Source: Pseudonocardiaceae bacterium (GTDB taxonomy: Bacteria; Actinomycetota; Actinomycetes; Mycobacteriales; Pseudonocardiaceae). From it: DNA of 64,000 nt. Where the stretch lies: assembly GCA_009379815.1 (NCBI GenBank), contig WHSY01000009.1, positions 1 to 64,000 of the forward strand, read 5' to 3'. Under the pieces are notes generated by a model. That model had not been told where the DNA came from. It worked only from the letters and a program-made list of their open reading frames with translations, and searched no databases. Shown here one piece after another: positions 1-20,779 of this stretch; the first letter of the stretch is position 1; each line of letters starts with the position of its first letter. The position numbers and the translations under genes were made by a program.

Positions 1-319
1 TCAGCGGCTCGGTTCGCTCGCCGCGGATCACGCCGATGGTGCGGAAGCCGCAGGCGCGCCCGGCGGCGGCCACGGCCCGGATGTGGTTGGAGTACGCGCC
101 GCCGAAGGTCAGCAACGTAATGTGCCCCTGCCGCTGCGCTGCGAGGAGATTGTGCTCGAGCTTGCGCCACTTGTTGCCGGGGATCTCTGGGTCGATCAGG
201 TCGTCGCGCTTGAGCAACAACCGCAATCGCCGCTCTTTGAGCCGGGGATCGTTGTGCTCCTGCACGGGAGTCGGTAGCCGCTCGGCGATCCGAGCGGACA
301 GCTCCCACGTTGCCGACAC
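1..319 (-). CDS. PLP-dependent D-cysteine desulfhydrase / ACC deaminase family protein (N-terminal part)
   Basis: Translating the minus strand gives a frame that stays open to the left edge, so only the N-terminal third is present. It reads LPTPVQEHNDPRLKERR, then LLLKRDDLIDPEIPGNKWRK and later LLTFGGAYSNHIRAVAA. These are hallmarks of the fold-type II PLP enzymes that include 1-aminocyclopropane-1-carboxylate deaminase and D-cysteine desulfhydrase. The lysine in GNKWRKLE is the expected Schiff-base lysine, and the SNH of AYSNH is the usual cofactor-phosphate and substrate region. The GTG at 319 is the start I chose, but no clear ribosome site precedes it and the frame is open slightly further upstream. 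Substrate cannot be decided from this fragment. Confidence 0.75.
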   Translation of the reverse strand, partial: MSATWELSARIAERLPTPVQEHNDPRLKERRLRLLLKRDDLIDPEIPGNKWRKLEHNLLAAQRQGHITLLTFGGAYSNHIRAVAAAGRACGFRTIGVIRGERTEPL

Positions 320-380
320 GTACCGACTGTAGGCCGCGCCTGCTACGCGACGGGCGGAGGCGCTTGTTGCCAGCGCCCGT

Positions 381-427
381 CGGTTGGTTGGCTGTCAGAT
401 CGACCAACCGAGCATCTCCGGCTCGGT
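381..427. promoter_or_regulatory. Pair of inverted repeats upstream of the IetAS-like pair
   Basis: Two adjacent hairpin-forming repeats lie in the gap before the AAA ATPase gene: CGGTTGG at 381-387 pairs with CCAACCG at 404-410, and ACCGAG at 408-413 pairs with CTCGGT at 422-427. They could be an operator or, less likely, a terminator. No T-run follows. The role is inferred from position only. Confidence 0.3.
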
Positions 428-490
428 GAAGTGTCAGACTGGTCCGTCAGAGTTCATGGCAAGGCTTGCCGGACGGCGCGGAGGTGAGCG

Positions 491-1495
491 ATGGCTCGTG
501 GTGACCAGCTCCGCCGCTTGTTCGCCAGCTACGGGAACTCCGACGACGCGGGCTTCCGCAAGGCGGCGAACGAGTTGATCGCCGACGAGCGCAACAAGAA
601 TCACCGCCTGCTCGCTGCCGAGCTCGAGCACGAGCTCAACTCGGCGCAGCGCCCCGGCGTGAGCCAGCCGCTGACCCTGCGTCCCCTTCCCAAGGGCCGC
701 GACGACCGGCCACTGATACGGCTGTCCAAGCCCCAGCGCGAACTCGCCGAGCTCGTACTGGCCCCGTCGGTGCGGACGGTGATCGACGAGGTCGTCGCAG
801 AGAACAGTTCGCGAGCAGCGCTCACGAGCCATGGCCTCCATCCGCGGCAGCGGCTGCTCATGACAGGGCCACCTGGCACCGGCAAGAGCGCGAGCGCGCA
901 CGCCATCGCCGCCGAGCTCAGTCTGCCCGTCGCGACCGCATCGCTGGCCGCGATGACGTCGTCCTTCCTCGGCGACACAGCGAAGAACATCGAAGCCGTC
1001 GTCCGATTGGCTGAACAGACCCCGTGCGTCGTGCTGTTCGACGAGTTCGACGTGCTGGGTCAGGAGCGGGGGCAGACCGGGGATCACGGCGAGATGCGGC
1101 GGGTCGCTGCCACCGTGTTGCAGCTGCTCGAAGAGATGCACGGCGAGTCGATTTTCATCGCTACCACCAACCGTCCGCAGCACCTCGACACCGCTGTGTG
1201 GCGGCGCTTCGACGAGCTCATCGGCTTCGATCGGCTCAATCAGACGCAGCGGGCTGAGCTGATCTCGCTGAAGCTCCGTGCGGTCCGTACCGGTTTGTCG
1301 GCTCGGCAGTGGGCGCGGACATTGAGCTGGCTGACGCCGGCGGAGGTCGAGTTGGTGTGCGTCGATGCGATGCGACGGATGGTGCTCGGGGGGCAGGATG
1401 CGGTCGATGACTCGATGATGAAGGCGGCCTTTCACCAGATGCGACGGCGTCGGGCGCTGCTCAGCGTCGCTGCTCCAAGCGGGCATGATGACTAG
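491..1495 (+). CDS. ietA: AAA+ ATPase of an IetAS-like anti-phage pair
   Basis: A 334-residue single-domain AAA+ ATPase. Walker A is GPPGTGKS at about residues 126-133, Walker B VVLFDEFD at about 180-187, and a sensor-1 IATTNRP with a following WRRFDELI arginine region is clear. A roughly 120-residue helical N-terminal region precedes the ATPase core. The ATG at 491 has a strong GGAGGTGA site five bases upstream. The next gene, in the same direction after 65 bp, is a subtilisin-like protease. An AAA ATPase followed by a subtilase is the arrangement of the IetAS defence system, in which the ATPase is thought to control the protease. Assignment to IetA rests on this pairing and domain order; I could not run a family search. 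Confidence 0.75.
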   Translation: MARGDQLRRLFASYGNSDDAGFRKAANELIADERNKNHRLLAAELEHELNSAQRPGVSQPLTLRPLPKGRDDRPLIRLSKPQRELAELVLAPSVRTVIDEVVAENSSRAALTSHGLHPRQRLLMTGPPGTGKSASAHAIAAELSLPVATASLAAMTSSFLGDTAKNIEAVVRLAEQTPCVVLFDEFDVLGQERGQTGDHGEMRRVAATVLQLLEEMHGESIFIATTNRPQHLDTAVWRRFDELIGFDRLNQTQRAELISLKLRAVRTGLSARQWARTLSWLTPAEVELVCVDAMRRMVLGGQDAVDDSMMKAAFHQMRRRRALLSVAAPSGHDD

Positions 1496-1560
1496 CCGAT
1501 TCGGCTGATCTTTCCCGGCCTTCGCACCCCTGCCGTCACTGTCCGGGTAGGCCGGGTCAC

Positions 1561-3942
1561 ATGACGCAACTGTCGTTGGACGGCGGCCGCGAGCACGCGC
1601 ACCTCCGGCTCGCGCGCGCTCTCGACCCGTTGCCGCGTCGGATGGTGTCAAGCGGCGGTGATCGCGGTCGTGCTTACCCGGACCACCGCTCCCATGCGAG
1701 GGACCTGGCGAACCAACTCGCCGGCATCCGCGATCGGCACCGCTCGAGAGCCCCGGTGCTCGGAATCAAGCCCGACCTCGTGATGGTCATCGAGTTCAAC
1801 CAGAAGGTCGTCCACCTCGTCGAGGCTGTCGAGCAAGCCGGGCTTCGCGTCCTCGACGCGACCGGGCTGCGCACCCTTGCCGCCTTCTCCAGTGACCCAG
1901 AGCTGGCCGGCTTCGAAAATCGACGTCGCGCCTACGAGACCGAGGTGACGGAGAAGGGCGTGCCGCGGCACAACGACCTGTTCGACGCGATCGAGTCCGT
2001 CCGGCCGCTGGAGGCTCGCGATGTACTCGACGAAGACGTCGCTCGCCGTCTCGATACGGCGGTGCTCGATGAACTGCTCCGCGTCGACATCGAGTGCTGG
2101 TGCACTGAGGACAAGGACGACACGGAGCGGCGGCACGACGACACGCTTGCCGCACTCGACGCGGCGGGGGCGACCGTGTTGGACCGCACCTGCCGATATG
2201 CGGCAGGGCTGTCGCTCGTCCGGGCAGACGTACCTGCCGGAAGACTGCGGGAGGTCGTGAGCACCGAGCGGATCAGCCGGGTGTCGCTGCTACCCCGGCC
2301 GCTGCTGAGCCACCCCGAAGTCGTCCGGTGGTCCGTGGACGAGTTGCCTGTGGTCCTCCCGCCTCAGGAACACGCCGCGGTGGTGGCGGTCATCGATTCC
2401 GGCATACAGGCCGGCAACCCGCTACTCGCACCGGCTGTCGCCGAGGCGCTGAGCGCCGTCCCGGAGATCCCCGACGGCTCCGACGAAACCGGCCACGGCA
2501 GTCTCGTGGCCAGCCTGGCGCTGTATGGATCTCTCGAGGGCAGGCTCGACCGGCGGGAAATGGTGCGTGCCGCGGGCACGCTGCTCGGCATCCGTGTGCT
2601 CGACGCCGGAGGCAACTTCGTCGACGACCGCCTATGGCAGCGCCAGGTAGAGGATGCGCTCGAACTGGCTGTCGCTCACGGTGCACGGGTCGTCAACCTG
2701 TCCATCGGAGATCCGAGACACCCGTACCGCCCACCTGCGCCGACGGCGATCGCGTCGGTACTGGATGGCATCGCTCGCGAGCACGACGTCGTACTGGTGG
2801 TGAGCGCGGGCAACGTCCACTGGGAGGATCCGCCCGGTTCCGACTACGCGCGCTGGTCGCTCGCGGCGGACGAGACCGGGCTCGCGCCCCCGGCGATGTC
2901 TGCCATCGCGCTGACCGTCGGCGCTCTCGTGGCGGACGGCGAGCAGGGCATGCGGCCGGCCAGGGAGAGCGTGGCGGTACGAGCCGTGGGGCGTCCGGGG
3001 ACGCCGAGTCCGGTGAGCCGCACCGGCCCCGGCATCGAGCACGCGATCAAGCCCGAACTCTGCGCTCCCGGTGGTACGTACGTCTACGATTCCGATCAGC
3101 GCCGGATCCGTGCTGATCACGCTGCCGGCAAGATCGTCGGAGCGGCCGGAGGACGACCGGATGCCTTGCTCGCTACGGACACCGGGACCAGCTTCGCCGC
3201 ACCGTTGGTGACGCACGCCGCTCTCCGAGTGTTCGGCCGCTACCCGCAGCTGTCGGCGCGTGCGGTGCGCGCGCTCGTCCTCGCGTCGGTGAGGGCGGTC
3301 CCCTGCATCGTCGAAGGGGAGAGCGAGAACCACGCGGTCAAGGCGCAGCGCCACCTCAGTGGCTTCGGCCGAGTCGACGCCGAGCGAGCGGAGCATTCCA
3401 CCGACCATCGGGTCGTGCTGCTCGCCGAGGAGCAGCTGTTGCCGGACCAGGTGCACTTCTACACGGTGCCGGTGCCCAGCGCGTTCTTCCGGCCAGGACG
3501 CAAGGACCTCAACGTGGCGCTCGCCTTCGATCCCGCAACACGGGCGACCCGCCTGACGTACCTGGCCAGCCGCATGTCGGCCTTCGTCTACCGCGGGGTC
3601 TCGGTAGACGACGTCAGCACCAAGTTCGCGGCGTCACAGGGCGAACCACCGGACACACTGGACAGCCGCAAAGTCGACCTGTCGCCCTCCGACACCGACC
3701 GGCTACTGGGGGCGAACCAGGCCGCAAGCAAGCATTGGACCCGGAGCTGGAATCCAGACGAGCATGACGAGCTGGTCATCGTCGTGCGCAGCACCAATCG
3801 GTGGGCCGCCCCCGACCAGCCGCAGCCGTACGCGCTCACCGTCGTTCTCGAGGCTGTAGAAGACATGCTCACGCTCTACAACGAGCTGCAGGTGCACTTC
3901 GAAGCACTAGCCGAGGTGGAGCCGGAGATCGAGATCCGCTGA
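1561..3942 (+). CDS. ietS: Subtilisin-like S8 serine protease, IetS-like
   Basis: A 793-residue protein with a long N-terminal region (about 270 residues) followed by a complete S8 peptidase domain. The catalytic triad is visible as D279 (VAVIDSGIQ), H312 (DETGHGSLVAS) and S544 (TGTSFAAPLV). About 230 residues follow the catalytic serine. There is no signal peptide or membrane segment, so it should act in the cytoplasm, as expected for a defence protease rather than a secreted subtilase. Large N-terminal and C-terminal extensions around the S8 core fit the IetS partner of AAA ATPases. The start at 1561 has only a weak ribosome site, but the reading frame begins there. With the preceding ATPase gene it forms a two-gene operon. 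The target of proteolysis is unknown. Confidence 0.75.
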   Translation: MTQLSLDGGREHAHLRLARALDPLPRRMVSSGGDRGRAYPDHRSHARDLANQLAGIRDRHRSRAPVLGIKPDLVMVIEFNQKVVHLVEAVEQAGLRVLDATGLRTLAAFSSDPELAGFENRRRAYETEVTEKGVPRHNDLFDAIESVRPLEARDVLDEDVARRLDTAVLDELLRVDIECWCTEDKDDTERRHDDTLAALDAAGATVLDRTCRYAAGLSLVRADVPAGRLREVVSTERISRVSLLPRPLLSHPEVVRWSVDELPVVLPPQEHAAVVAVIDSGIQAGNPLLAPAVAEALSAVPEIPDGSDETGHGSLVASLALYGSLEGRLDRREMVRAAGTLLGIRVLDAGGNFVDDRLWQRQVEDALELAVAHGARVVNLSIGDPRHPYRPPAPTAIASVLDGIAREHDVVLVVSAGNVHWEDPPGSDYARWSLAADETGLAPPAMSAIALTVGALVADGEQGMRPARESVAVRAVGRPGTPSPVSRTGPGIEHAIKPELCAPGGTYVYDSDQRRIRADHAAGKIVGAAGGRPDALLATDTGTSFAAPLVTHAALRVFGRYPQLSARAVRALVLASVRAVPCIVEGESENHAVKAQRHLSGFGRVDAERAEHSTDHRVVLLAEEQLLPDQVHFYTVPVPSAFFRPGRKDLNVALAFDPATRATRLTYLASRMSAFVYRGVSVDDVSTKFAASQGEPPDTLDSRKVDLSPSDTDRLLGANQAASKHWTRSWNPDEHDELVIVVRSTNRWAAPDQPQPYALTVVLEAVEDMLTLYNELQVHFEALAEVEPEIEIR

Positions 3943-4354: not shown

Positions 4355-5055
4355 GTGGCAAGCGGATCACCACAACGCGACCGGGCGGAATCCTTCACCG
4401 CGCCCGACCAGGTCAACCATCGCCGCTACGAGGCGCTGCGCGGGTTCTTCGTCGACGGGCTGACCCACGCCCAGGCCGGGGAACGCTTCGGCTACACCCG
4501 CTGGGCGATGGTCAACCTGGTGCGCGAGTACCGGGCCGGGCGCCTGGAGCTGTTCGCCCCGCCCCGGCGCCCCGGCCCACCGCCGGGGACAACCCCGGCC
4601 AAGGACCGCGCCCGCGCCCGGGTGATCGAACTACGCCGGGACGGCTTGTCGACCTATGAGATCTCCGCGCGGCTGGCCGCCGAAGGCACCCCGCTCAACC
4701 GCACCAGCGTGGGTGAGATCCTGGCCGAGGAAGGGTTCGGGCGCCTGCTGCGCCACCCGGCCGAGCAGGCCAGCACCGCGGTGTCCACCGCCGGCCGCGA
4801 CACCCGGCTCCCCAAGACCGCGGCACTGGACTTCGCCACCTGGCCGGCCCGGCTCGACACCGGCAAGGCCGGACTGCTGCTGCTGATACCCGACCTGCCC
4901 TCGACCTGCCCGCCCTCATCACTGCGGCCGGCTATCCCGGCACCCGCGTCGTGCCGGCCACCTCGTGGCTGCTGTCGCTGCTGGCGTTGAAACTGACCCG
5001 GACCCGGCGGGTCTCCCACGTCGATGACCTGCTGCTGACCGACCCCGCCGCGGAT
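4355..5055 (+). pseudogene. Transposase remnant with N-terminal helix-turn-helix (actinobacterial DDE type)
   Basis: The first 180 residues contain two helix-turn-helix stretches (FVDGLTHAQAGERFGYTR and LRRDGLSTYEISARLAAEG), then EEGFGRLLRHP and FATWPARLDTGKAGLLLLIP. This is the layout of the N-terminal part of a common actinobacterial transposase. At about 4896 the frame shifts by one base: the continuation (PALITAAGYPGTRVVPATSW, then LALKLTRTRRVSHVDDLLL) is in another frame. Homology stops near 5055, where an opposite-strand gene begins in mid-sequence. The catalytic DDE part is gone, so it cannot be active. No terminal inverted repeats or target duplication were found. Confidence 0.7.
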
Positions 5056-6034: not shown

Positions 6035-6271
6035 GGTTCGCCGCTCGCTCGATGGCCAGCCGGGACAGCTACATAACGACCCGGAGCAGCATGTCGAGAC
6101 CCTCGCTGAGATGAGCTCGGAGATCGAAAACCGCTGAGCGGCATACTCGATCGATGGTTGTGCCGCCCGTGACCTCGGACCGCCATCGCCTCGTGTCACG
6201 CCGACGCTCCGTAACGGAAGGTGACGCTGCGGCGATGGCTGGGTAGGAACAGCGACAGGGGCGGTACTCGC

Positions 6272-8551
6272 ATGGCCAAGTTGGGCACGATCCTGGATCA
6301 GATCGATGCGGGCTCGATGCTCCTGCCGGAGTTTCAGCGCGGCTACGTCTGGAACCGGGACCAGGTACGGGCGTTGATGCGGTCTATGTACCTCGAGCAC
6401 CCGGTGGGCGCGTTGCTGATCTGGGAGACCGACGGCGGGGGTCACGCGGTCCGCGGTACCGCCGAGGTGACGACCGGGCCCAAGCAGCTGCTCCTCGACG
6501 GGCAGCAGCGTGTGACGACGCTTTACGGCATCGTTCGCGGTCGGCCGCCCTCGTTCTTCGAGGGCGATGCATCGGCCTTCGCCGGCTTGCGGTTCAACGT
6601 CGAGACCGAGGCTTTCCAGTTCTACGCCCCGGTCAAGATGAAGGACGACCCGCTGTGGATCGACGTCACGGCGCTGTTCGTGGACGGGCCCGCATCCCAG
6701 TACGCCCAACTGCACCGGTACCGGCAGGGGCAGCAGAGGTTCGGCGTCTACGTCGAGCGGCTGACCCGGCTGCACAGCATCCTGCAGCGTGAGTTCCACG
6801 CCGAGCGGATCACCGGCGCGGACAAGTCGGTCGACGTGGTCGTCGACATCTTCAACCGCGTCAACTCCGGCGGCACGAAGTTGTCGAAGGGCGATCTGGC
6901 ACTGGCGAAGATCTGCGCCGAGTGGGGCGATGCACGACCGACGATGCGCCAGACCTTGCAGAGCTGGCAGGCCCGCGATTACCACTTCACGCTCGACTGG
7001 CTGTTGCGCAACGTCAACGCCGTCGCCACCGGCCGGGCCTCGTTCTCCGCGCTGGACGAGGTCGACGCCGCTGAGTTCGAGAAGGCGTTGCTGTCGACGA
7101 CGACGCAGGTCGAGTACCTGCTGGGCCTCGCGGGCGGCCGGCTTGGACTCGATCACGACCGCGTGCTCATGGGTCGTTACGCCTTCCCCGTGCTCACCCG
7201 GCTGCTGCACCTGCGTGGCGGCCAGTTCGCCGACGACGCGGAGGCCGATCGGGCCCTGTTCTGGTGCGTCCACGCCGCGCTGCGGGGACGGTTCGCCGGC
7301 TCGACGGAGACCGTTCTCACCAAGGATCTCGAAACGGTCGAGCGCTCAGGCGTGGACGGCCTCATCGCGGCGCTGCGCCGGGCGCGCGGCGGCAACCTGT
7401 CGATCGAGTCCCACGATTTCGAGAGTCTCGGCCGCGGATCCCGCTTCTACCCGTTGCTCTACCTGCTGACCCGGGTCCGAAGCGCGCGCGATCTCGCCTC
7501 GGGCGTGCCGCTCGGCGAGGGGACGGTGGCACTGCAGGTGCACGAGATCTTCCCCAAGGCCCAGCTGTACAAGCACGGCTACTCGCGCAGCGAGGTCAAC
7601 GCCATCGCGAACTTCGCGTTCGTGGTGCCGTCGACGGGCAGCGCGCTTGGTCGGCGGGAACCGGTCGAGTACCTCGGGGAATGCCACCCCGCCGCGCTGC
7701 GATCCCAGTGGATTCCGGACGATCCCGCGCTGTGGCGGCTGGAGAACTACCGGGAGTTCCTGGCCGCTCGCCGTGAATTGCTGGCCGCAGCGGCCAACGA
7801 GTTGCTCGACCAGCTGCAGGGTGGCCGGCTGCCGTGGGCCGGCAGGCTCGCGCCGGTCGCGGTCTCCCCGGGGGACGAGGGGCCGGACGCGAAGGCTGCC
7901 CAGGTGCGCTCGCTGCTCGACGAGCTCGCCGACCTCGGGTACGCCACGCCTGCGGTGGACGCCGAGATCGCCGATCCGGAGACCGGGCGCGTGCTGGCCG
8001 TCGCCGAGGGCTTCTGGCCGGACGGCCTGCAGGTGGGCCAGGGGCCGCCGGTCGTGCTCGAGCTCGATCCGGAGGAGGCCGATCTGGACCGGCTGTCCGA
8101 ACTGGGGTGCGAGGTCTTCACCTCCGTCGACGCGCTGCGCGGCTTCGTGCAGCGACGTAGCCGGGCGGAATCCGGCGAGGCGGGAGACGTCGACCCGCGC
8201 GGGGAGGCGGAGCGAGACGATGAGCCGACAACAGAGCCCGCGACTGCCGACCTGAGCTTCGATCGGGCAGTGCTGGAACTGGTCGACCGGTGCCGCGCCG
8301 AGCTGAGCTACAACCCGCGGTACTTCCGGGTCATGATCACGCAGCACGGCACGCTGGGCGCCGCTCGGCGCCTGCTGGCCGCACCGGCCGTGAGCGACGG
8401 CTTCGTGCGGCTGTGGGAGAAGCAGCGGCTGGATCTCAGCGTGGAGAGCCTGGCCACCGACGAGCGGTTCGCCCACCTGTTCACCGAGCAGGAACAGGCA
8501 ACCGCGCGGCAGCGGCTGGACGACTTCGGCTACGGGCCGGCCGCCGCGTGA
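6272..8551 (+). CDS. DUF262 (GmrSD-like) protein with HNH-like region and extra C-terminal domain
   Basis: A 759-residue protein from ATG 6272 (ACAGGGG upstream; an in-frame GTG at 6221 is less likely). The DUF262 domain is marked by LPEFQRGYVW at residues 18-27 and LLLDGQQRVTTL with DGQQR at 76-80. In GmrS-type proteins this is the ParB/Srx-like nucleotide-dependent part. In the middle the sequence VHEIFPKAQL with a downstream NAIANFAFV resembles the His-Me (DUF1524/HNH) nuclease motif of GmrD. The last 90 residues (YNPRYFRVM, GAARRLLAAP, ARQRLDDFGY) form a separate domain that I have seen described only as a tail on other defence proteins. It probably acts as a type IV-like restriction nuclease. 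Its 3' end overlaps the convergent helicase gene by 22 bp. Confidence 0.7.
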   Translation: MAKLGTILDQIDAGSMLLPEFQRGYVWNRDQVRALMRSMYLEHPVGALLIWETDGGGHAVRGTAEVTTGPKQLLLDGQQRVTTLYGIVRGRPPSFFEGDASAFAGLRFNVETEAFQFYAPVKMKDDPLWIDVTALFVDGPASQYAQLHRYRQGQQRFGVYVERLTRLHSILQREFHAERITGADKSVDVVVDIFNRVNSGGTKLSKGDLALAKICAEWGDARPTMRQTLQSWQARDYHFTLDWLLRNVNAVATGRASFSALDEVDAAEFEKALLSTTTQVEYLLGLAGGRLGLDHDRVLMGRYAFPVLTRLLHLRGGQFADDAEADRALFWCVHAALRGRFAGSTETVLTKDLETVERSGVDGLIAALRRARGGNLSIESHDFESLGRGSRFYPLLYLLTRVRSARDLASGVPLGEGTVALQVHEIFPKAQLYKHGYSRSEVNAIANFAFVVPSTGSALGRREPVEYLGECHPAALRSQWIPDDPALWRLENYREFLAARRELLAAAANELLDQLQGGRLPWAGRLAPVAVSPGDEGPDAKAAQVRSLLDELADLGYATPAVDAEIADPETGRVLAVAEGFWPDGLQVGQGPPVVLELDPEEADLDRLSELGCEVFTSVDALRGFVQRRSRAESGEAGDVDPRGEAERDDEPTTEPATADLSFDRAVLELVDRCRAELSYNPRYFRVMITQHGTLGAARRLLAAPAVSDGFVRLWEKQRLDLSVESLATDERFAHLFTEQEQATARQRLDDFGYGPAAA

Positions 8552-10635
8552 GAGTCCCGGGGGAGAAGCTCGCTGCGGGGACCGGACCAGGAGATCCGCA
8601 GCCGTTCGCGGGCGCGGGTGCAGGCGACGAACAGCAGGCAGCGCTCCTGCTGCACGTCCAGTGCGTGCCGGACCGGGTCCTCGGACTCCGGCGTGACGGC
8701 CTGGGGAAGCGGCAGCGAATCCCGTCCGACGTCGGCGACGGCGACGCAGCGGAACTCGAGGCCCTTCATGCCGTGCATCGTGCCCACCCGCAGCGCGGAC
8801 GCCGTGTTGTGCAGGTCGGTGGTGCTGATCGACGCATTCCCCAGCGCGGTGGCGATTCGCCTCGCCACCCGGTTGGTCCGCGCCACCACGGCCATGTCGC
8901 CCCACTCGACGCCGTCGTCGTGCCAGCCGCGCAACGCGGTGGCCAACTCTGCCACCTCGCCGGATCTCATGTCTGCTGGAGCGAGCACCGGCGGCTCCCC
9001 GTGCAAGGCGGAGCGGTAGCCCGTGAGCGTGTCGGTGCCTTCGTCGAGATCGCCGATCGGGAGGTCGCCGAGCACGCCGAGCGACCAATGCAGGATCTCG
9101 GCGGTGGTTCGGTAGTTGATCTGCAGCCGCGTCGACCGGCCGCTGACGGTGATCCCGACCCGGCGCAGGCTGACGTGGTTGCCGTAGATCCGCTGGTGCG
9201 GGTCCCCGGTGAGGAAGAGGTCGTCTGGGCCGAGCGGGGCCGCCGCCCGCAGCAGCCGCCAGTGGGCTGGGTGCAGGTCCTGAATCTCGTCGACCACGAC
9301 GTGCCGGAACGGCGGCCGTTCCCGCGCTCTGACCAGCCGCGCGGCCTCGTCGGCGATACCCAGCCAGGTCCACACTCGGTCGTCGCGCAGGCCCGCCTGG
9401 AACCGCTCGATCGCGGACCAGATGCGGCGCTTCTGTGCCTTGCCGAGGCCGCGCCCGCGCCCCCGGCGCGACGCGGCGAGGTACGCGTCCCCGTCGGTGA
9501 TCGCATGGGCAAGGACGACGTGCCGCCACTCGTCGAGCAGGAACGCCGGGCTGAACTCGGCCTCGGTGGCTGCCCGCCTCATCCGCTCGCGCAGGTGGTC
9601 GTCCGAGACGAGGTCGAGCGGGCCGTGCTCGGCCCGGACGACCCCGTTCGCCCACCGGTCGACGTTGACGACTTGCACGGCCTGGCGCTCGTCGGGGTCG
9701 AGCAGCTGCGGGAGGTCGCGGTCGAGCGCATCGGCCAGCCCGCGGTTGAAGGTGGTCAGCAGCACCGACTTCGACGGCAGCTCACGCCTGCTCACCAGGT
9801 GCCTCACCCGGTGCAGTGCGACGACGGTCTTGCCGGTGCCCGGGCCGCCGGTGACCTGGGCGCTGCCCCAGTAGGTCGGGCGGTAGGCGACCTGCTCCTG
9901 CGACGGGTGCAGGAACACCCGCCACAGCGCGAGCGGCTTGTCGAACAGCGCGAGCAGCTCCTCGGGTCTGTCGACGAGCGCGACCCTGCCCCGGCTGCGC
10001 TCGGCGGCAGCTCCGAGATCTCCGGTGTCGATATGCTCCGCAGGCACCCGCGGCGCCACGATGTCGGCCCAGACCTCCTCGACGGTCATCCCCGAGGCGA
10101 GCGCGTAGAGCACGTCGCTCTGGTTCTCGGGCAGCAGCGGGGCGATGGCGTCGAGCATCTGTTCGTCGGTGACGGTGTGGGCCGCGGTCAGCACCTGCTC
10201 GTCGATGCCGAGCCTGCGCAGGTCGGCGTCGCTGACCGTGCCGAACAGCCGCTCGGGCTCCGGGTCGGACTCGGCGGGAGACTCGGCGGCCAGCTGCTCC
10301 AAAGCCTCGACGTCGCGGACCTCCAGCACACCGGAGACCTCGTTCACCGTGAACCGGTGCGACTTCGCCCAGGCGCTGGCGTCGTCGTGCGGCATCACCC
10401 GCAGCAGGACGTAGCGATCACCCTGCTCGGGAGCCAGCACGACGCCCCGCCAGAACTGGTCGATGCGGATCGTGCGGGCGCGGTCGTCGCGTGCACCGCT
10501 GACCTTCTCCAGGTGCAGCCCGGCGTGGGTGTGCTCCCCGAACTTCGCCAGGGCTTCTTTCGTCCGTCGCTGGACCGGACCTTGCAGCCGCGCGAACTCG
10601 CTGAGGAAGTCGACACCTACGGCCAGCTGGGGCAT
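8530..10635 (-). CDS. UvrD/Rep-family helicase with N-terminal RelE-like domain
   Basis: A 701-residue superfamily 1A helicase. Motif I is GGPGTGKT (lysine about residue 269), motif II VVVDEIQDLHP, motif III DPHQRIYGN, motif IV INYRTT, motif V GTMHGMKGLEF and motif VI FVACTRARERLRISW. The first 90 residues (VDFLSEFARLQGPVQRR, FGEHTHAGLHLEKV, RTIRIDQFWRGVVLAP) resemble a RelE/ParE-type toxin fold, seen at the N-terminus of some UvrD-like helicases. ATG 10635 has GGGAGGTG eight bases upstream, so longer starts are unlikely. It is convergent with the DUF262 gene, overlapping 22 bp, and divergent from the RecD-like gene. A role in defence or DNA processing is inferred from context. Confidence 0.75.
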   Translation of the reverse strand: MPQLAVGVDFLSEFARLQGPVQRRTKEALAKFGEHTHAGLHLEKVSGARDDRARTIRIDQFWRGVVLAPEQGDRYVLLRVMPHDDASAWAKSHRFTVNEVSGVLEVRDVEALEQLAAESPAESDPEPERLFGTVSDADLRRLGIDEQVLTAAHTVTDEQMLDAIAPLLPENQSDVLYALASGMTVEEVWADIVAPRVPAEHIDTGDLGAAAERSRGRVALVDRPEELLALFDKPLALWRVFLHPSQEQVAYRPTYWGSAQVTGGPGTGKTVVALHRVRHLVSRRELPSKSVLLTTFNRGLADALDRDLPQLLDPDERQAVQVVNVDRWANGVVRAEHGPLDLVSDDHLRERMRRAATEAEFSPAFLLDEWRHVVLAHAITDGDAYLAASRRGRGRGLGKAQKRRIWSAIERFQAGLRDDRVWTWLGIADEAARLVRARERPPFRHVVVDEIQDLHPAHWRLLRAAAPLGPDDLFLTGDPHQRIYGNHVSLRRVGITVSGRSTRLQINYRTTAEILHWSLGVLGDLPIGDLDEGTDTLTGYRSALHGEPPVLAPADMRSGEVAELATALRGWHDDGVEWGDMAVVARTNRVARRIATALGNASISTTDLHNTASALRVGTMHGMKGLEFRCVAVADVGRDSLPLPQAVTPESEDPVRHALDVQQERCLLFVACTRARERLRISWSGPRSELLPRDSHAAAGP

Positions 10636-10742
10636 GCCCGCAACACCTCCCATGCCGTCACAAAGGTTTCCCGGCAGCCTGCCATTCGTCGCCGACGGTC
10701 TGCTCCTGGCTCGGAGTGCTGGTCGGAGGAAGGAACACCACA

Positions 10743-12734
10743 GTGCCATTCCACTTGAACGTCCGCGTTCCATGGCATGACGCCCGCTGGGACGGCACCG
10801 TCTGCCGCGCGCCTCGGCGCAACTCCTTCTGCCTCGATCTCGACAACATCCGCGACCGGAAAGACGACGCGGTGGAGGAGGAGCAGGCGGGCAGCCACTT
10901 CGGCGATATCGAACCGGCGCAGCTTCCGCCGTGTAGCAGCGAGTCCGGTGCCTTCATGTCACCACGCGAGTGGTGGCAGGTGCGGACCCACCCGTACGCG
11001 GGTCTGCGACAGGCACGGTCCACACACGGCCAGCTCCTGCCGACGCGGATCCGGATGCCCGCGTTCTCGACGCTGGCCGTGCCGTTCTGGTGGATGCTTC
11101 GGCAGAACCAGGGAGTGGTGGACGCCCGCGTGGCCGAGCCGTTGCCACCGGACGAGGACCCGCCGTTCGACAGCGCCTGGGTCTTCGGTCGCGCTCGGCA
11201 GGAGGCCATCGGCGACCTGTTCTTCAGCAGGCTGGCCGCCGGATCCTCGCTTGTCATCTTCTACACCAAGAGCGGGCACCCGCTGGACGAGGGCATCAAT
11301 CGCCTGGTGGTCGGCATGGGGCGGCTCGACAACCTCGGTCCGATGCTCCGGTACGACGTGGAATCCGGTCCGACCTACCCCCTCTGGGAACGCTCGGTCG
11401 AGCACTCGATCCGGCCGGACGGAACCGACGGCTTCCTCGTGCCTTACCACGACTACCTTCGGCCCACCGGCGATCCCGACGAGGACCAGCGGCGGCAGGA
11501 GCTGGTCAGGGAGATCATGGTCGTCCCGGAGCAGGCGAACATCGCCGCCTACAGCTACGCGGGCGAGCTCGCCAATGCGGACGTCACGCTGTCGACGTGC
11601 GTCCGGGCGCTGGAAGCCGTCCGCCTCGTCCGGGGCCACGGCATCGCCCCAGGACCGTGGTCGGAGCGGGAGGACTGGCTGAACGGGCAGATGTCCGCCC
11701 TCTGGCGGGACCGGGGCGCGTTTCCGGGTACCGGAGCGGCCTTGGAAGCCCTCGGCCTGCGGCTCGGGACGGCGATGGTCTACGACCTGATGGCTTCACG
11801 TCGGCTGGCCGCTACCGAGGACCCCTGGCCGCTGCTCGACGCCATCCTCCGCGGCGACGAGCCGGCACCCAGTGCGGCCTACGCGGCAGACGTCCGGGCG
11901 ACGGCACCGACCTGGGTGGGCTTGAGTGCGCAGCGGCGGTCATTGCTGCAGCTGCTTTCCCGCTTCGCCCTGACAGCAGAACAGGCGCGACGCTGGTTCG
12001 ATCCGGCCCGCAGGGCACGGGCCATGCGTGGCGAGGTGGACGATGCGGGGATCATCGCTAACCCGTACCGCATCACCGAGTGCGACCTCGGGGACGCGAA
12101 CGAGCACCCGATCACCGTCGGCACGCTCGACCGGGGACTTCTGCCCGATCCGACGGTGGCTGCGGCGCACCCGGTGCCCGAACCGTCGCACGTCGGCGCG
12201 ACGGGCGACTGGCGGCGTGTCCGCGCCGGTCTCGTCTCGGTGCTTCGGCGGGCCGCGACCGAGGGCGATTCGTTGCTGGCTCGTGACGAGGCGCTGCATC
12301 GGCTGTCGGCGCTGGACCTCGCGCAGCCGCTCGACCTCCCGCCGGACTGGATGAGCGGCCACGCACCCGAGCTCGCGGAGGAGATCGATCTGTTCGACGT
12401 GCACGGTGCGGGGCAGGACGGTCCGGGCATACCCTCGGTCCAACTCGTCGAGCACCGTTCGACGGAGGAGCGGCTGCGCAGCATCCTGTTGCTCGTCAAG
12501 CACCAGCTCAGTGACGGGCGACGGCGCGATCGACAGTGGGCGGTTCCGTGCAGCACCTCGTTGACGGCCTGCTCGTCCCGGGCGGCCCGCCGGCCTCTCG
12601 GTGCGGTGGTCTTCGCGCCGCCGATGGTGCGCTGGATGTCCGGTGCGATGATCTCGTTCGCCGACCCGAGGTCGATCTCGACGCGCGCGATCTTGACGGC
12701 GATCCGGTTCAGGAACTCGGTGTCGCCGGCGTAG
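10743..12734 (+). pseudogene. RecD2-like helicase, N-terminal half only (motor domain lost)
   Basis: From GTG 10743 (GGAGGAAGG upstream) the product begins VPFHLNVRVPWHDARWDGTV. Around residues 430-545 it contains IIANPYRITECDL, LLPDPTVAAAHPVP and WRRVRAGLVSVLRRAATEG, resembling the helical region that precedes the ATPase core of RecD2/TraA-type helicases. About residue 581 (12487) it enters a 57-bp sequence that also occurs in the DUF4011 gene. After that the frame runs antisense through the SNF2 gene to a stop at 12734. No Walker A or other helicase motif is present, so the motor is missing. The family assignment is moderate; the truncation is well supported by the opposing gene being cut at the same point. 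Confidence 0.55.
12488..12544 (-). repeat. 57-bp repeat, copy 1 (inverted relative to 30590-30646)
   Basis: These 57 bases are identical to the reverse complement of 30590-30646; identity stops abruptly at both ends. Here the repeat sits at the junction of two convergent truncated genes. In the other place it lies inside the linker between the nuclease-like and DUF3320 parts of the DUF4011 gene. It has no terminal inverted repeat of its own that I can see. Confidence 0.9.
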
Positions 12735-14671
12735 CTCGCGTCGTGCTCGTCTCCCCTGACGGGGAAGAAGTGGTGGATCTCGGGTTCGTTGCGTTGCCCG
12801 TAGCGGTCGATGCGCCCGATGCGCTGCTCGAGCCGGTTCGGGTTGAACGGGATGTCGAAGTTCACCAGCCGGTGGCAGTGGCGCTGCAGGTCGATGCCCT
12901 CACCGGCCGCGTCGGTGGCGACCAGCACCCGGATGGGGTCGCTCTCGGGCGGCTCGTTGAACCGCTCCCGGATGAGCTCGCGCTCCTCCCGGTCGGTGCT
13001 GCCGGTGATCACCGCCAGCTCGCGCTCGCCGTAACCGCGGGAGGTGAGGACCTCCTGTATCCAGTTGAGGGTGTCGACGTACTCGGTGAAGATCACTACC
13101 CGCTCGTTGCTCCAGTGACCGCCGGGGCGGACCACCGCGTCGAGCATGGTGATCAGTTCTTTCAGCCGCGAGTCGGGGCGGCCCTGGTAGCCGTGACCCC
13201 AGGACCTGAGGTACTCCAGGTCGGCGACATCCTCGTCGGTGAGCGGCGGCAGGACCCGGCCGGTGCTGCGCAGCGCGGCGTGCTCGGGCTGGTCGAAGAG
13301 GCCCTCCTCGACGTCGTCGGCCTCGGAACCCAGCACCTCGTCGTAGTCGGGGATGTCGCCGCGGCCGCCGGAGACGCGGTTCGCGATATAGGAGTCGACG
13401 GTGCGGGCGAATGCGACCGGAGAGGAGAAGAACCGCTTCTTCAACAGCAGCGTGGCCAGGTCCCTCGCCTGTTGGTTGTCCCCGGCGGCTGCCTGCTGGC
13501 GGCGGCGGGTGAAGGCGATGAGCCGGTCGTAGGCCTGCGACTCGTCGTCGGTGGGTTCGAAGGGCAGCGTGCGTACCTGGCGCTGCCGGAACCCCTTCTG
13601 CCCGGCGAGGTCGGACTTGAGCCGGCGAACCGCGACCTCGTGCAGCGTCGCAGCGTCGATCCCTGCGCCGCGGGCGAACCGCTGCGGATCGATCATCGCC
13701 AGCAGCGCGGCGAACGACTCGGTGTAGCCGTTGTGCGGGGTGGCGGAGAGGAACAGCCGGTGCTCGCACGCGTTCGCCAGGTCCCGGACGGCCAGCGTGC
13801 GCTTGCTGTCGACGGCGTAGCCGCGGCGGCCCTGCGCGGCGTGCGGCGCGGCCGGAGCGACGTGGTGCGCTTCGTCGACCACGAGGATGTCGAAGGCGAA
13901 CCGGCGGGCACCCTTGCGGTCGCTGCTCCGGGCCTGCACTTGCTGGAGCAGCCGCTGCGCGCGCTGCCCGGGGAGCCACGACATCGACACGATGACGCGG
14001 GGGAACAGGCCGAACGGGTTCGCGTGCAGCCCGTGGGAGCGTCTGATGTCCCGCATGGCGGCGGAGTCGATCACCTGGAACTCCAGGCCGAACTTCTCGC
14101 GCATCTCGTCCTGCCACTTCAATACGAGGCCCGCGGGGCAGACGATGATCACGCTGCGGGCGCGGTGGCGCAGCAGCAGCTCCTGGACGACCAGGCCGGC
14201 CTCGATGGTCTTGCCGAGTCCGACGTCGTCGGCCAGCAGCAGGTTGGTGCGCGGTGAGCGCAGCGCGCGTCGCAGCGGTTCGAGTTGGAAGGCCTCGACC
14301 GTGGCGCCGCTGCGAAACGGTGCCTGGACGGTGCGGGCGTCGGCCGAGGTGAGAGCGCCCCACCGCAGGGCGTCGACGAACGCGGCGAGGGTGCCTGGAT
14401 CGTCGAAGTGCTCCGCGTCGACCACCTCAGGAAGACCCTGCTCCGGGACGACCGTACGTCCGGGCTCGAGTTCCCAGACCACCCGCAGCTCCTCACCGAG
14501 GCGGTCCTCGGCAATGGACTGGAGGCTCACGGCGTGCTGGAGGCCGGCGGTCGGGTCGTCGGCTGAGCTCCGGGGAAGGCCCTGCGCCGTGACGTCTGTG
14601 ACGGCCCACCGTTCGCCGCGGACTTCGACGATCTGCCCCTCTTCGGGCAGGTCGATGATCGCTGCTGCCAT
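12545..14671 (-). CDS. drmD: SNF2-family helicase, DrmD-like, 3'-truncated
   Basis: About 709 residues remain from ATG 14671. The SNF2 N-terminal ATPase motifs are ADDVGLGKTIEAGL (GLGKT at 151-155), VVDEAHH (266-270) and FLSATPHNGYTES. The C-terminal motifs are VIFTEYVDTLNWI, VLVATDAAGEGIDLQ and LEQRIGRIDRYGQ, so the motor is complete. The family (long SNF2 helicases such as DISARM DrmD) normally continues several hundred residues further. Here coding sense ends at NEVLHG (12545) where the 57-bp repeat begins. The frame then stays open antisense to the RecD-like gene until 11879. It is the last gene of the minus-strand methyltransferase-vsr-helicase group, 58 bp after vsr. DISARM helicases act on incoming DNA; whether this shortened one works is unclear. 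Confidence 0.7.
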
Positions 14672-14729: not shown

Positions 14730-15167
14730 TCACCCCCTCCTGTGGGTATCTCGTCGTTCGATCAACTCGTTACGGATGGTCATCACCACGGCGTCGGGCT
14801 CCTCGTGTTCCCAGAAGCGAAGGACTCGCCAGTCACGGCTGGTCAACACGGCATCGGTCCGCCGGTCGCGTGCGATGTTCTCGTCGAGCTTCTGCCGCCA
14901 CCACGCGGCGTTCGCCTTCGGTGCGGTGGCATGGATCGGGCAGCCGTGCCAGTAGCAACCGTCGATGAACACGACGATCTTCAGTCCACCCCACACGATG
15001 TCCCCACGGACGCGCAGGTCCGGCTCCAGCTTCGCGTGCACCCGGTATCGCACGCCGGTCGCGTGCAGTCGTCGCCGAACTGCCACCTCCGGGACCGTGT
15101 CCCTCGACCGCTGCCGCACCATGCGCTCGCGGACGACATCTGACGAGGCCGGAGGCGTGTTGCTCAT
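14730..15167 (-). CDS. vsr: Very short patch repair endonuclease (Vsr)
   Basis: A 145-residue protein with the Vsr signature: RDTVPEVAVRRRLHATGVRY, then LRVRGDIVWGGLKIVVFIDG and CYWHGCPIHATAPK, followed by WWRQKLDENIARDRR and LRFWEHE. The aspartate of the RGDIV segment and the histidines of the CYWHGCP segment match the metal-dependent active site of Vsr, which nicks beside T:G mismatches arising from deaminated 5-methylcytosine. The ATG at 15167 overlaps the TGA of the methyltransferase gene by one base (TGATG), so the two are translationally coupled. Vsr next to a C5 methyltransferase is usual as a repair partner; in a defence island it may also act as the restriction nuclease. Confidence 0.9.
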   Translation of the reverse strand: MSNTPPASSDVVRERMVRQRSRDTVPEVAVRRRLHATGVRYRVHAKLEPDLRVRGDIVWGGLKIVVFIDGCYWHGCPIHATAPKANAAWWRQKLDENIARDRRTDAVLTSRDWRVLRFWEHEEPDAVVMTIRNELIERRDTHRRG

Positions 15168-16336
15168 CAGTTTGCGGCGAGTGCGACGTGCTCGTTGAGA
15201 TCACGCATGAAGTCCCCCGAGTATCGGAGCTTGCTCCCGGCGAGTCGATCGCGGAAGCCTTTCGTGGCGCGATACGACAGGGGCTCCGCTCCGTAGCGAC
15301 GTAGCAGGCTGCTCAGGTGGCGGTACTGGCCTCTCGGCTGCTTCGGCCACTCGGAGATCTCTACGCGCCAGGTCGTGGATCCCCGGCGGTGGGCCGCGAA
15401 CGGCCATGGCGACCCTGGTGGGAGCCGTCGGCGCTCCAGGTCCTCGACCAGGCGTGAGTCGGGCATCTCGATCAGACCCTCCCCGATCCATCGTGCGGCC
15501 GGGGCGCTGACGGCGTTGCCCACGAGCTTCCATCGATCACGGATCGGTGCCGGGCCGGTCCAGCCAGCCGGCAACCCCTGGAGACGCTCGGCCGCTTCGA
15601 TCGAAGGTCGGACCAAGCGCAAGCCCGGCTCCGTCGATCGCAACCAGGCTGCCGGCGAGCTGGGGATGCTGACGGAAGTGGAGCCCTTGAGAGCAGGTAG
15701 CGCGTCGACCGCCCATCCGATCCCGCGGTTTCCCTCGGTCCAATAGAAGCCGAAAGCGTCCGACCAGGCACCGGTTGCGCCGCCATCGGCGCGCAGGGAC
15801 GGTCGGTCCGACCGGAAGAGCACGGCCGCGGGATCGTGCACTCGTGAGGCGAGGAGATAGACGCGTCGCCGGCGCTGGGGAAGGCCGAAGGACCGGGAGT
15901 CCATCACCCGGTAAGCCCAGTCGTATCCAGCTGTCTCCAGGGCGGTGACAATCTCGGCCATTGCGCGCCCGGACCCCAGATGGAGCATGTTCGGCACGTT
16001 CTCGAGCAGGAGCCACTCGGGTCGACCCGACTGCAGCAGGGCGAGCACCTGCCTGATCAGGCCTGACGCAGTGCCGTCCAGACCCTGGGCCCGACCGGCT
16101 TGGGACAGGTCTGTGCACGGGAATCCGGCTGTCACGAGCGTCGCGCCGTGCAGGTTCTTCAGCGACACGATGTCGCCGTGGAGTGATACGTCGGGGAACC
16201 TGGTACTCAGGACGTCTTGTGCTGGGGCCCACGACTCGTAGAACGCGGTGGTGTTGGTGAGCCCGGCCTGGGCCAGGCCGAGTTCGATGCCGGCGATACC
16301 CGAGAAGAGGCTGAGGATGCCCTGGTCGGGCTTCAT
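15167..16336 (-). CDS. drmMII: C5-cytosine DNA methyltransferase (DrmMII-like)
   Basis: A 389-residue C5 DNA methyltransferase with motif I LSLFSGIAGIELGL, motif IV TAGFPCTDLSQAG (catalytic cysteine in the PC pair), motif VI LLLENVPNM, motif VIII GLPQRRRRVYLLAS and motif X near KLVGNAVSAPAARW. About 110 residues follow motif X. The methyltransferase of class 2 DISARM (DrmMII) is of this type, and drmA/drmB-like genes lie directly across a 279-bp divergent promoter region. Its product would mark host DNA as self. It begins a minus-strand operon with vsr and the SNF2 helicase. Recognition sequence cannot be read from the protein. Confidence 0.85.
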   Translation of the reverse strand: MKPDQGILSLFSGIAGIELGLAQAGLTNTTAFYESWAPAQDVLSTRFPDVSLHGDIVSLKNLHGATLVTAGFPCTDLSQAGRAQGLDGTASGLIRQVLALLQSGRPEWLLLENVPNMLHLGSGRAMAEIVTALETAGYDWAYRVMDSRSFGLPQRRRRVYLLASRVHDPAAVLFRSDRPSLRADGGATGAWSDAFGFYWTEGNRGIGWAVDALPALKGSTSVSIPSSPAAWLRSTEPGLRLVRPSIEAAERLQGLPAGWTGPAPIRDRWKLVGNAVSAPAARWIGEGLIEMPDSRLVEDLERRRLPPGSPWPFAAHRRGSTTWRVEISEWPKQPRGQYRHLSSLLRRYGAEPLSYRATKGFRDRLAGSKLRYSGDFMRDLNEHVALAAN

Positions 16337-16615: not shown

Positions 16616-17737
16616 ATGATGGGCGACGAGCCGGTCGAGCGGTGCGTGCGCGACGCCCAGGCCGACCACGCCCGCCAAGGCGGCCTGGGACCAGACGACC
16701 TGCACAGGCTGATCGCGGCGCACCGGCTGGGGCCGGACGAGGCAATACTTGCCCACCGGGCGTTGGTCGCGAGCGGTATTCAGGTCGATGACGCGGACGA
16801 CAGCGACTCGCGGGCGGTCATCGACGCCAATTCCACTACTCGGTTCATGGCTGATCGATGTCGCGCACGGCTGCTCACGGCCGAGGAGGAGGTCCAACTC
16901 GGGCGCCGCATCTCGTTGGGCCAGCAGGCCTCCACACTCCTCGCTGCGCAGGCCGACCCGACCGGCGACCTCGCAAAGGTGGTGGCCGACGGCGCCGAGG
17001 CACGGCAGCGACTGATCACGTCCAATGTGAGACTGGTTGCCTCGATCGCTCGACGACACCTCGGCCGCGGGCTCGATCTCGACGACCTCATCCAAGAGGG
17101 GATCTTGGGGCTGGCACGCGCAGTCGAGAAGTTCGACTACACACTGGGATACAAGTTCTCGACCTACGCGACATGGTGGATCCGGCAGGCCATCGACCGC
17201 GGTCTCGCGAACACCGGCCGACTCATCCGCCTACCGGTGCACTACGTCGAGCTGGTCAACAAGGTCACCCGCGCGCAGTGGCGCCTGAGCCAGCGGCTGG
17301 ACCGCACTCCGACCCTGCGGGAGCTGGCCGAAGCGGTCGAGCTCGATCAAGCCGTCGTACAGGCCGCACTGGAGCACGCTCGCGGACCGCTGAGCCTCGA
17401 CGCTACCGTCGCTCCTGGAGACGCCACACTCGGGCACCTCCTGCCATACAACCAGACCTCGCTCGAGGACGAGGTCGTAGACGCCCACGTGAGGCAGGAG
17501 ATTCACGATCGCCTGAGCCGATTCGAGAGCCAACAGTCCCGGAACCGGATCAGCCCAGTCGAGGTCTTGCGGCGACGGTTCGGCCTCACCGAGGACGGTC
17601 GAGTGTGGACGCTCGAGGAGATCGGCACGGAGTTCGGCGTCACGCGCGAGCGGATCCGGCAGATCCAGGAGAAGGCGCTCGCCGACCGCAACATCCGCGT
17701 CCTGTTTGCCGACCTGCACGAGAAGGAGATCGCGTGA
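16616..17737 (+). CDS. Sigma-70 family RNA polymerase sigma factor inside the DISARM-like locus
   Basis: A 373-residue sigma factor with region 1.2 ([13 protein letters not shown]), region 2 ([53 protein letters not shown]), region 3 ([10 protein letters not shown]-like [15 protein letters not shown]) and region 4.2 ([20 protein letters not shown]). It is of the SigA/group 2 type, not an ECF factor, and no anti-sigma gene is adjacent. ATG 16616 has AGAGGAG four bases upstream. Its 3' end carries the AAGGAG ribosome site of drmA, and its TGA overlaps the drmA GTG (GTGA), so the two proteins are made together. It is likely to direct transcription of this operon or of other island genes when activated; this is inference. 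Confidence 0.9.
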
Positions 17738-20700: not shown

Positions 20701-20766
20701 GGCGGCGTCGTCATGCGGTCGCTCCGCGACGTCGAGGAATCCGCCCCCGTCATCGAGACGATCTGA
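17734..20766 (+). CDS. drmA: DrmA-like helicase of a DISARM-like system
   Basis: A 1010-residue superfamily 2 helicase-type protein starting at GTG 17734, coupled to the sigma gene by GTGA. Motifs are [19 protein letters not shown] (GGGKT at about 379-383), [13 protein letters not shown] (about 611-623), VASSATLTG (about 648) and [15 protein letters not shown] with [12 protein letters not shown] (about 842). GGGKT and DELH in this spacing are typical of DrmA. A cysteine-rich stretch with [18 protein letters not shown] and CSMPGHGYC between motifs I and II suggests zinc binding. DrmA is a core DISARM protein that works with DrmB in blocking incoming DNA. The next gene is drmB-like after 13 bp. 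Longer frames upstream would overlap the sigma gene and are not real. Confidence 0.85.
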
Positions 20767-20779
20767 GGACGTGCCCACG

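What the first reader, a model, noticed from the sequence alone, without database searches (positions are those of the whole stretch)
491..3942. IetAS-like ATPase-protease defence pair at the left end of the island
Seen: AAA+ ATPase and cytoplasmic subtilase with complete catalytic residues, same direction, 65 bp apart. Known: IetAS is a reported anti-phage system of this composition. The large extensions of the protease could carry target specificity.
Basis: partly seen in the sequence, partly recalled or inferred. Interest (0 to 1): 0.5.

Follow-up and report, generated by a model that had tools for sequence, protein, structure and literature searches.

The report
Divergent IetAS protease and ATPase pair
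Two neighbouring bacterial genes encode an ATP-driven ring protein and a protein-cutting enzyme; they are an intact but divergent copy of a known anti-phage (and toxin-antitoxin) pair, sitting among other defence genes.

Summary
In detail: 491-1495 encodes a 334-aa AAA+ ATPase, 1561-3942 a 793-aa subtilase, same strand, 65 bp apart, with D279/H312/S544 in place. Both stay far under NCBIfam's IteA/IteS equivalog cut-offs (196 of 510, 95 of 900 bits): a family member, not an equivalog of the prototypes. Nearest proteases found are 54-58% identical. In tested relatives the protease is a toxin and the ATPase its antitoxin (PMC5006074, PMC8562856; passages). And the protease's N-terminal extension looks less like a recognition module: in the AlphaFold model residues 171-250 lie where pro-subtilisins carry their prodomain, with a similarly ordered unit before it and a beta domain behind. 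Most likely a restrained protease toxin held by an FtsH/PAN-type AAA ring and released in infection; trigger and target unknown. New member of a known kind; modest interest.

The parts
491..1495 (+). ietA-like AAA+ ATPase, 334 aa: N-terminal helices (2-50), AAA module (about 75-325) with Walker A 126-133, F159-L160-G161 at the pore-loop-1 position (assignment recalled), Walker B D184-E185, N227, R238-R239
1561..3942 (+). ietS-like S8 protease, 793 aa; D279, H312, N418, S544
1768..2010 (+). IetS residues 70-150: first unit with ferredoxin-like strand-helix order, predicted only
   Evidence: secondary structure of the model; no Pfam match
2071..2310 (+). IetS residues 171-250: second such unit, in the position of a subtilisin prodomain in the model
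   Evidence: pro-forms 3whi, 3wiv and EpiP 3t41 align from model residue 169-171; no Pfam I9 match
2371..3405 (+). IetS residues 271-615: subtilase catalytic domain
   Evidence: Pfam PF00082 272-589
3406..3858 (+). IetS residues 616-766: C-terminal beta domain (alignments with KP-43 and Tk-SP run to residue 763 and 773)
1496..1560 (.). 65-bp spacer; longer than in most of 77 pairs (median 2 bp, each ORF taken from its first possible start)

Best explanation
An intact, divergent IetAS pair. Shown: an AAA ATPase gene of the FtsH/PAN kind directly followed by a subtilase gene with all catalytic residues, both matching IetA and IetS profiles. Inferred from tested relatives: IetS is a protease toxin, IetA the antitoxin that neutralises it. 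Inferred from the model: IetS is built like an intracellular pro-subtilase (extra ferredoxin-like unit, prodomain-like unit, catalytic domain, C-terminal beta domain), so it is probably made in a restrained state; the IetA ring, using ATP and its pore, keeps IetS off or correctly processed. Infection disturbs IetA or its hold, and freed IetS cleaves host (perhaps also phage) proteins, stopping phage production at the cell's expense. Trigger, target and direction of IetA's action are guesses.
For: PADLOC IetA/IetS matches over 1-321 of 334 aa and 40-785 of 793 aa. 84 of 129 loci examined (80 after removing 4 duplicates; window included) have an IetA-like ORF upstream of the IetS-like ORF on the same strand; in the 77 of those 80 with full-length genes, IetS D279, H312, N418, S544 and IetA K132, D184, E185, N227, R238, R239 are invariant. 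IetA's model superposes on PAN (3h4m, Z 26.2, 250 residues) and, tied within 1, FtsH (2ce7, Z 25.6) and proteasome Rpt subunits, with Y or F at the pore-loop-1 position in 63 of 77 and G161 in 77 of 77. IetS model: mean pLDDT 86.9; residues 171-612 align with pro-subtilisin E (3whi_B, Z 30.4, 330 residues) against about 245 for mature subtilisins. Toxicity and neutralisation shown for SGI1 S025/S026 and mycoplasma T133/A132 (PMC5006074, PMC8562856; passages). A broken pair in the 58%-identity relative G106 and, in G831, a second ietA kept whole beside an ietS cut to 378 aa fit toxin-antitoxin logic. Defence neighbours: DISARM parts in the window, Pgl/BREX genes in G106.
Against: No experiment on this pair. 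NCBIfam equivalog cut-offs not reached, so transfer of function from the prototypes is loose. Three intact IetS-like ORFs lack an upstream IetA (L080, with a convergent IetA downstream; L092 and L147, no Walker A motif found in the fetched DNA). A Pfam I9 match in 0 of 28 members at E up to 1; the prodomain claim rests on one predicted model whose coordinates I could not inspect, and 4 of 50 listed rows span that part. The 54% relative G163 (L035) has neighbours that do not look like defence genes by eye (not profiled). Neighbours DrmD and PDC-S68 look truncated, so the island may be decaying.
Confidence: 0.55

Rival explanations
1. Two-component ATP-dependent protease: IetA recognises and unfolds a phage protein and hands it to IetS for degradation, as FtsH or PAN do for their peptidases; toxicity of IetS alone is a side effect of missing control.
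For: IetA's fold and pore-loop pattern are those of translocating unfoldases; catalytic motifs kept in both partners in 77 of 77 pairs; A and S distances correlate strongly (r 0.89, 0 of 1000 label shuffles as high), though shared descent alone gives that.
Against: Relatives behave as toxin and antitoxin when expressed without phage. The rows listed for the IetS model are subtilases, not ring-chamber peptidases. IetA has only a small helical N-domain.
Confidence: 0.25
2. A selfish stability module (addiction) of a mobile element or island; phage defence here is incidental.
For: The pTiC58 and SGI1 relatives were described as maintenance systems (PMC5006074 passages); IetS-like matches occur in 322 PLSDB plasmid records, 26 of them over at least 80% of the query, and 23 of 24 IMG/VR loci carry the pair.
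Against: The window neighbourhood is DISARM and other defence genes; the SGI1 operon gave no post-segregational killing from its own promoter.
Confidence: 0.13
3. A formally intact but idle remnant in a decaying island.
For: DrmD (profile to 712 of 1040) and PDC-S68 (to 567 of 1221) are cut off where they meet; a fragment with HTH matches under cut-off, transposase-like from recall, follows ietS (4355-4990); the sister copy in G106 is broken.
Against: Both genes are open over full length with all catalytic residues and coding-type third-position GC.
Confidence: 0.07

Closest known systems
IetAS anti-phage system (PADLOC IetA/IetS; NCBIfam IteA NF042959 / IteS NF042956)
   Same: AAA ATPase followed by S8 protease, same strand; profile matches over nearly full length
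   Different: 196.1 of 510 and 94.6 of 900 bits against the equivalog cut-offs; lies in an actinobacterial set of 7 in a tree of 77; 65-bp spacer against a median of 2 bp
ietAS of pTiC58 and sgiAT of SGI1 (toxin-antitoxin); mycoplasma A132/T133
   Same: Same two-gene composition, ATPase gene first; described as related in PMC5006074 and PMC8562856 (passages)
   Different: From proteobacterial mobile elements or mycoplasmas; toxicity and neutralisation tested there, not here; their sequences were not fetched or aligned
Pro-subtilisins and Tk-SP / KP-43 subtilases
   Same: Prodomain-like unit, catalytic domain and C-terminal beta domain align in order (3whi Z 30.4; 3afg Z 29.8, 461 aligned; 1wmd Z 30.0, 382 aligned)
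   Different: Those are secreted (recalled); IetS has an extra N-terminal unit, no visible export signal and an AAA partner; the prodomain is not recognised by Pfam
PAN / FtsH AAA unfoldases
   Same: AAA fold and pore-loop pattern
   Different: No fused protease, no proteasome partner gene; small helical N-domain

Membership tests
IetAS (PADLOC) | AAA ATPase matching IetA model | tested here: met
   PDLC04232 E 9.9e-72, 240.1 bits, 1-321 of 334 aa
IetAS (PADLOC) | S8 protease matching IetS model | tested here: met
   PDLC02198 E 1.3e-90, 302.5 bits, 40-785 of 793 aa
IetAS (PADLOC) | the two genes adjacent, ATPase first, same strand | tested here: met
   65 bp apart
IetAS (PADLOC) | catalytic triad and AAA motifs kept | tested here: met
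   the genome-contig loci were picked by a GTSxAAP-type pattern, so the serine's conservation there is partly by construction
IetAS | protects against phage | not testable with these tools
   needs a phage challenge
NCBIfam IteA/IteS equivalogs | score above the curated equivalog cut-off | tested here: not met
   196.1 of 510 bits and 94.6 of 900 bits
IetAS-type toxin-antitoxin | protease toxic alone, neutralised by the ATPase | not testable with these tools
   reported only for relatives
Subtilisin-type zymogen | I9-like prodomain before the catalytic domain | tested here: inconclusive
   aligns with pro-forms in the model; Pfam I9 match in 0 of 28 members

The most novel reading that the evidence does not exclude
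IetS proteases are AAA-gated zymogens: a double ferredoxin-like N-terminal module holds the subtilase shut inside the cell, and the IetA ring pulls on or guards this module, so that infection turns ATP-driven remodelling into protease release. This would be an immune protease controlled by threading of its own prodomain.
Probability: 0.15. Interest if true: 0.6.

Novelty: new member of a known kind. Interest (0 to 1): 0.3.

Why it matters
IetAS is detected widely, but two papers whose passages I saw still call its mechanism unknown or undescribed (PMC11878078, PMC9958689). This actinobacterial copy adds a divergent branch, and the predicted domain plan (double N-terminal unit, prodomain position, AAA partner) turns the question 'how is an intracellular subtilisin kept safe?' into point tests.

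Tried and rejected
Unrelated secreted subtilase with a chance AAA neighbour: rejected. T7SS mycosin (NCBIfam 76.6 bits, cut-off 278.75) and CBASS TRIP13 (51.9 bits): weaker than the IetS/IetA models.

Recognition domain in the N-terminus: over 28 members Pfam gave Peptidase_S8 in 28 and six other families in one member each at E 0.17-0.3; this does not exclude one. A PxP after the prodomain-like unit, invariant in the 11-sequence alignment, was considered as an uncleavable plug and dropped: P245 in 46 and P247 in 25 of 77.

'IetS never without IetA': rejected, three exceptions. The S-profile score alone does not separate paired from unpaired loci: nine paired loci score under 97 bits. Foldseek on BFVD gave mostly viral subtilases at the top, none named IetS in the 50 rows; PHROGs best hits are families of unknown function; the 'phages' collection gave 3 hits under 25% identity. 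The first genome-contig scan, with the single protein, found none. None of the 60 PDB sequences shown for each query (126 and 272 matched) is named as IetA or IetS. Ten paper searches listed no mechanistic study of IetAS beyond the toxin-antitoxin papers; the library lacks most subscription papers and preprints. Two of the 20 IetA places (G903, G759, at contig ends) were not followed further.

Full report
WHAT IS THERE. The two ORFs are as described: 491-1495 (+), 334 aa, and 1561-3942 (+), 793 aa, 65 bp apart. Motifs at the stated residues were confirmed by script. No ATG, GTG or TTG lies further upstream in frame of the protease. The window is bases 1-64000 of contig C733 (86,774 bases) of a 5.44-Mb, 733-contig genome. 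The family is probably Pseudonocardiaceae: genome G039, 'same family', holds its pair on a 17,132-base contig with the same protein as Haloechinothrix alba DSM 45207, contig also 17,132 bases, and that species is in Pseudonocardiaceae.

WHAT IT IS. PADLOC: IetA PDLC04232 E 9.9e-72, IetS PDLC02198 E 1.3e-90, both nearly full length, with other IetA/IetS models behind them. Pfam above cut-off: AAA for the first protein, Peptidase_S8 for the second. NCBIfam: best hits are IteA and IteS but at 196.1 of 510 and 94.6 of 900 bits. So: same family, not an equivalog. The genome holds one such protease; two further hits are weak (E 3.3e-5 and 2.9e-4).

RELATIVES. With E up to 1e-20, IetS relatives are in 7 of 200 genomes of the family (own included) and 4 of 394 of the class (own included); IetA at E up to 1e-40 in 18 of 396 of the phylum (own included). 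Nearest proteases: G106 58% and G163 54%, Pseudonocardia autotrophica 42%. Plasmids: 322 PLSDB records, all under 60% identity, 26 over at least 80% of the query. IMG/VR: 24 loci at E up to 1e-3. A tree of 77 IetS puts the window with G163 (support 100), then P. autotrophica (99), inside a 7-row set of actinobacterial sequences (99) (quick method, long branches elsewhere).

PAIRING. Of the 43, 38 score 97 bits or less and 33 of those are 390-672 aa long, which I take for other subtilases; L055 is in fragments, L074 starts at a contig edge, and L080, L092 and L147 are intact IetS-like ORFs without an upstream IetA. Nine paired loci also score under 97 bits, so score alone does not separate the two groups. 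Three rows with short ORFs (L034, L152, L156) were dropped before the residue counts (80 to 77). In 77 of 77: IetS D279, H312, N418, S544; IetA K132, D184, E185, N227, R238, R239. Caveat: the loci were found with a GTSxAAP-type pattern, so the serine is partly by construction there; those were not found by that pattern. Gap: 36 of 77 overlap or touch, 38 of 77 have 1-65 bp, 3 more, median 2; ORFs were taken from the first possible start, which overstates overlaps. Distances of A and S correlate (r 0.895, 0 of 1000 shuffles as high), which shared descent alone would also give.

ANATOMY. IetA model (pLDDT 88.8): three N-terminal helices, then an AAA module closest to PAN (3h4m, Z 26.2, rmsd 2.4, 250 aligned), with FtsH (2ce7, Z 25.6; 4ww0, Z 25.5) and a proteasome Rpt chain (9pf1, Z 25.6) tied. 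At the pore-loop-1 position (assignment recalled) residue 159 is Y or F in 63 of 77 and G161 in 77 of 77. IetS model (pLDDT 86.9, pTM 0.90): strand-helix order of residues 74-149 and again 172-243 is beta-alpha-beta-beta-alpha-beta, with one short extra helix (138-141) in the first; then the subtilase; then a beta domain 617-765. In the second look at PDB matches the top row is Vpr (8jmw, Z 31.1, 276 aligned, from residue 268). Pro-forms are 4 of the 50 rows: 3whi_B pro-subtilisin E (from 171; Z 30.4, rmsd 3.5, 330 aligned), 3wiv_C (from 169; Z 28.7, 330), 3t41_A EpiP (from 171; Z 29.3, 345) and ProN-Tk-SP 3afg_B (from 84; Z 29.8, rmsd 5.9, 461), whereas mature subtilisins align from about 261 with about 245 residues. 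KP-43 aligns 5..763 (Z 30.0, 382); Tk-SP is Foldseek's best (E 3.9e-26). Hence 171-250 lies where a prodomain lies. The tool warns that parts outside 255-621 are barely tested by these rows. Sequence does not show the prodomain: Pfam I9 in 0 of 28 members. Among the seven closest sequences the two N-terminal units vary more (0.36, 0.36) than the catalytic and C-terminal domains (0.43, 0.43), which fits a prodomain or a recognition part.

NEIGHBOURHOOD. In the window: a GmrSD_N/HEC-05-like protein (6221-8551), a UvrD-like helicase (8530-10773, -), PDC-S68 (10716 on, +) and DrmD (14671 down, -), a 5-methylcytosine methyltransferase (15167-16336, -), a sigma-70-like/MzaA-like gene (16616-17737), DrmA (within 16858-20766), a partial DrmB match (within 20486-22501) and an IrrE/capP-like protein (22621-23763). 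Of six relatives whose neighbours were listed, I profiled six proteins from two: in G106 the broken pair lies between PglW on one side and PglX and BrxC/PglY on the other; in G831 a type I restriction-like protein and a PADLOC helicase lie nearby. L035, L036, L048 and L059 were not profiled; those of L035 look like ordinary metabolic genes by eye.

HOW IT MOST LIKELY WORKS. PMC5006074 (passages): SGI1 S025 (subtilisin-like) is toxic in E. coli, S026 (AAA-ATPase) counteracts it; S026 and S025 are 50% and 36% identical to IetA and IetS of pTiC58. PMC8562856 (passages): mycoplasma T133/A132 likewise; it reports from earlier work that loss of the ATPase gene alone is lethal in a minimised cell. 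PMC10286901 (one table passage) lists ietAS among systems overcome by changes in functional phage proteins. The best reading is therefore a protease toxin held by its AAA partner and released in infection. The model suggests how such a protease can be kept safe inside a cell: a prodomain in place. Evidence from broken copies agrees but is thin: in G106 ietA is in three pieces, one break being an insertion with a transposase-like ORF, and ietS has a stop; in G831 a second ietA is whole while its ietS is cut to 378 aa. Whether IetA restrains IetS, matures it, or feeds it substrates is open.

VERDICT. The finding is real and correctly named at family level; it is a divergent, actinobacterial member. 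The added value is the domain plan and the toxin-antitoxin frame. Interest 0.3.

Noticed in passing
10716-12734 (+) and 11879-14671 (-): PDC-S68 (matches 12-591 aa, profile to 567 of 1221) and DrmD (matches to 714 aa, profile to 712 of 1040) converge and both lose their C-terminal parts near 12.5 kb: a deletion or rearrangement joint inside the DISARM neighbourhood.
   Followed up: partly
16616-17737 (+): Sigma-70-type factor (regions 1.2, 2, 3, 4 by Pfam; MzaA in PADLOC, profile 416-653 of 683) upstream of the DrmA match; a possible defence-linked sigma factor.
   Followed up: no
20486-22501 (+): DrmB match only from residue 432 (profile 397-635 of 649); the N-terminal half may lie in another frame or be lost.
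   Followed up: no
4355-4990 (+): Fragment just after ietS with HTH_32/HTH_23 matches under Pfam's cut-offs; transposase-like from recall.
   Followed up: no
1-340 (-): Partial reverse-strand frame at the contig end that looks, from recall, like a PLP-dependent ACC deaminase / D-cysteine desulfhydrase; may mark the border of the island.
   Followed up: no
L034 (G106:C13) 8536-13099: Sister ietAS broken by an insertion with a transposase-like ORF in ietA and a stop in ietS, between PglW and PglX/BrxC genes.
   Followed up: partly
L147 4236-6425; L092 4020-6272; L080 4200-6647: Intact IetS-like proteases without an upstream IetA; in L080 an IetA-like gene lies convergent downstream. Possible IetS with another partner.
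   Followed up: partly
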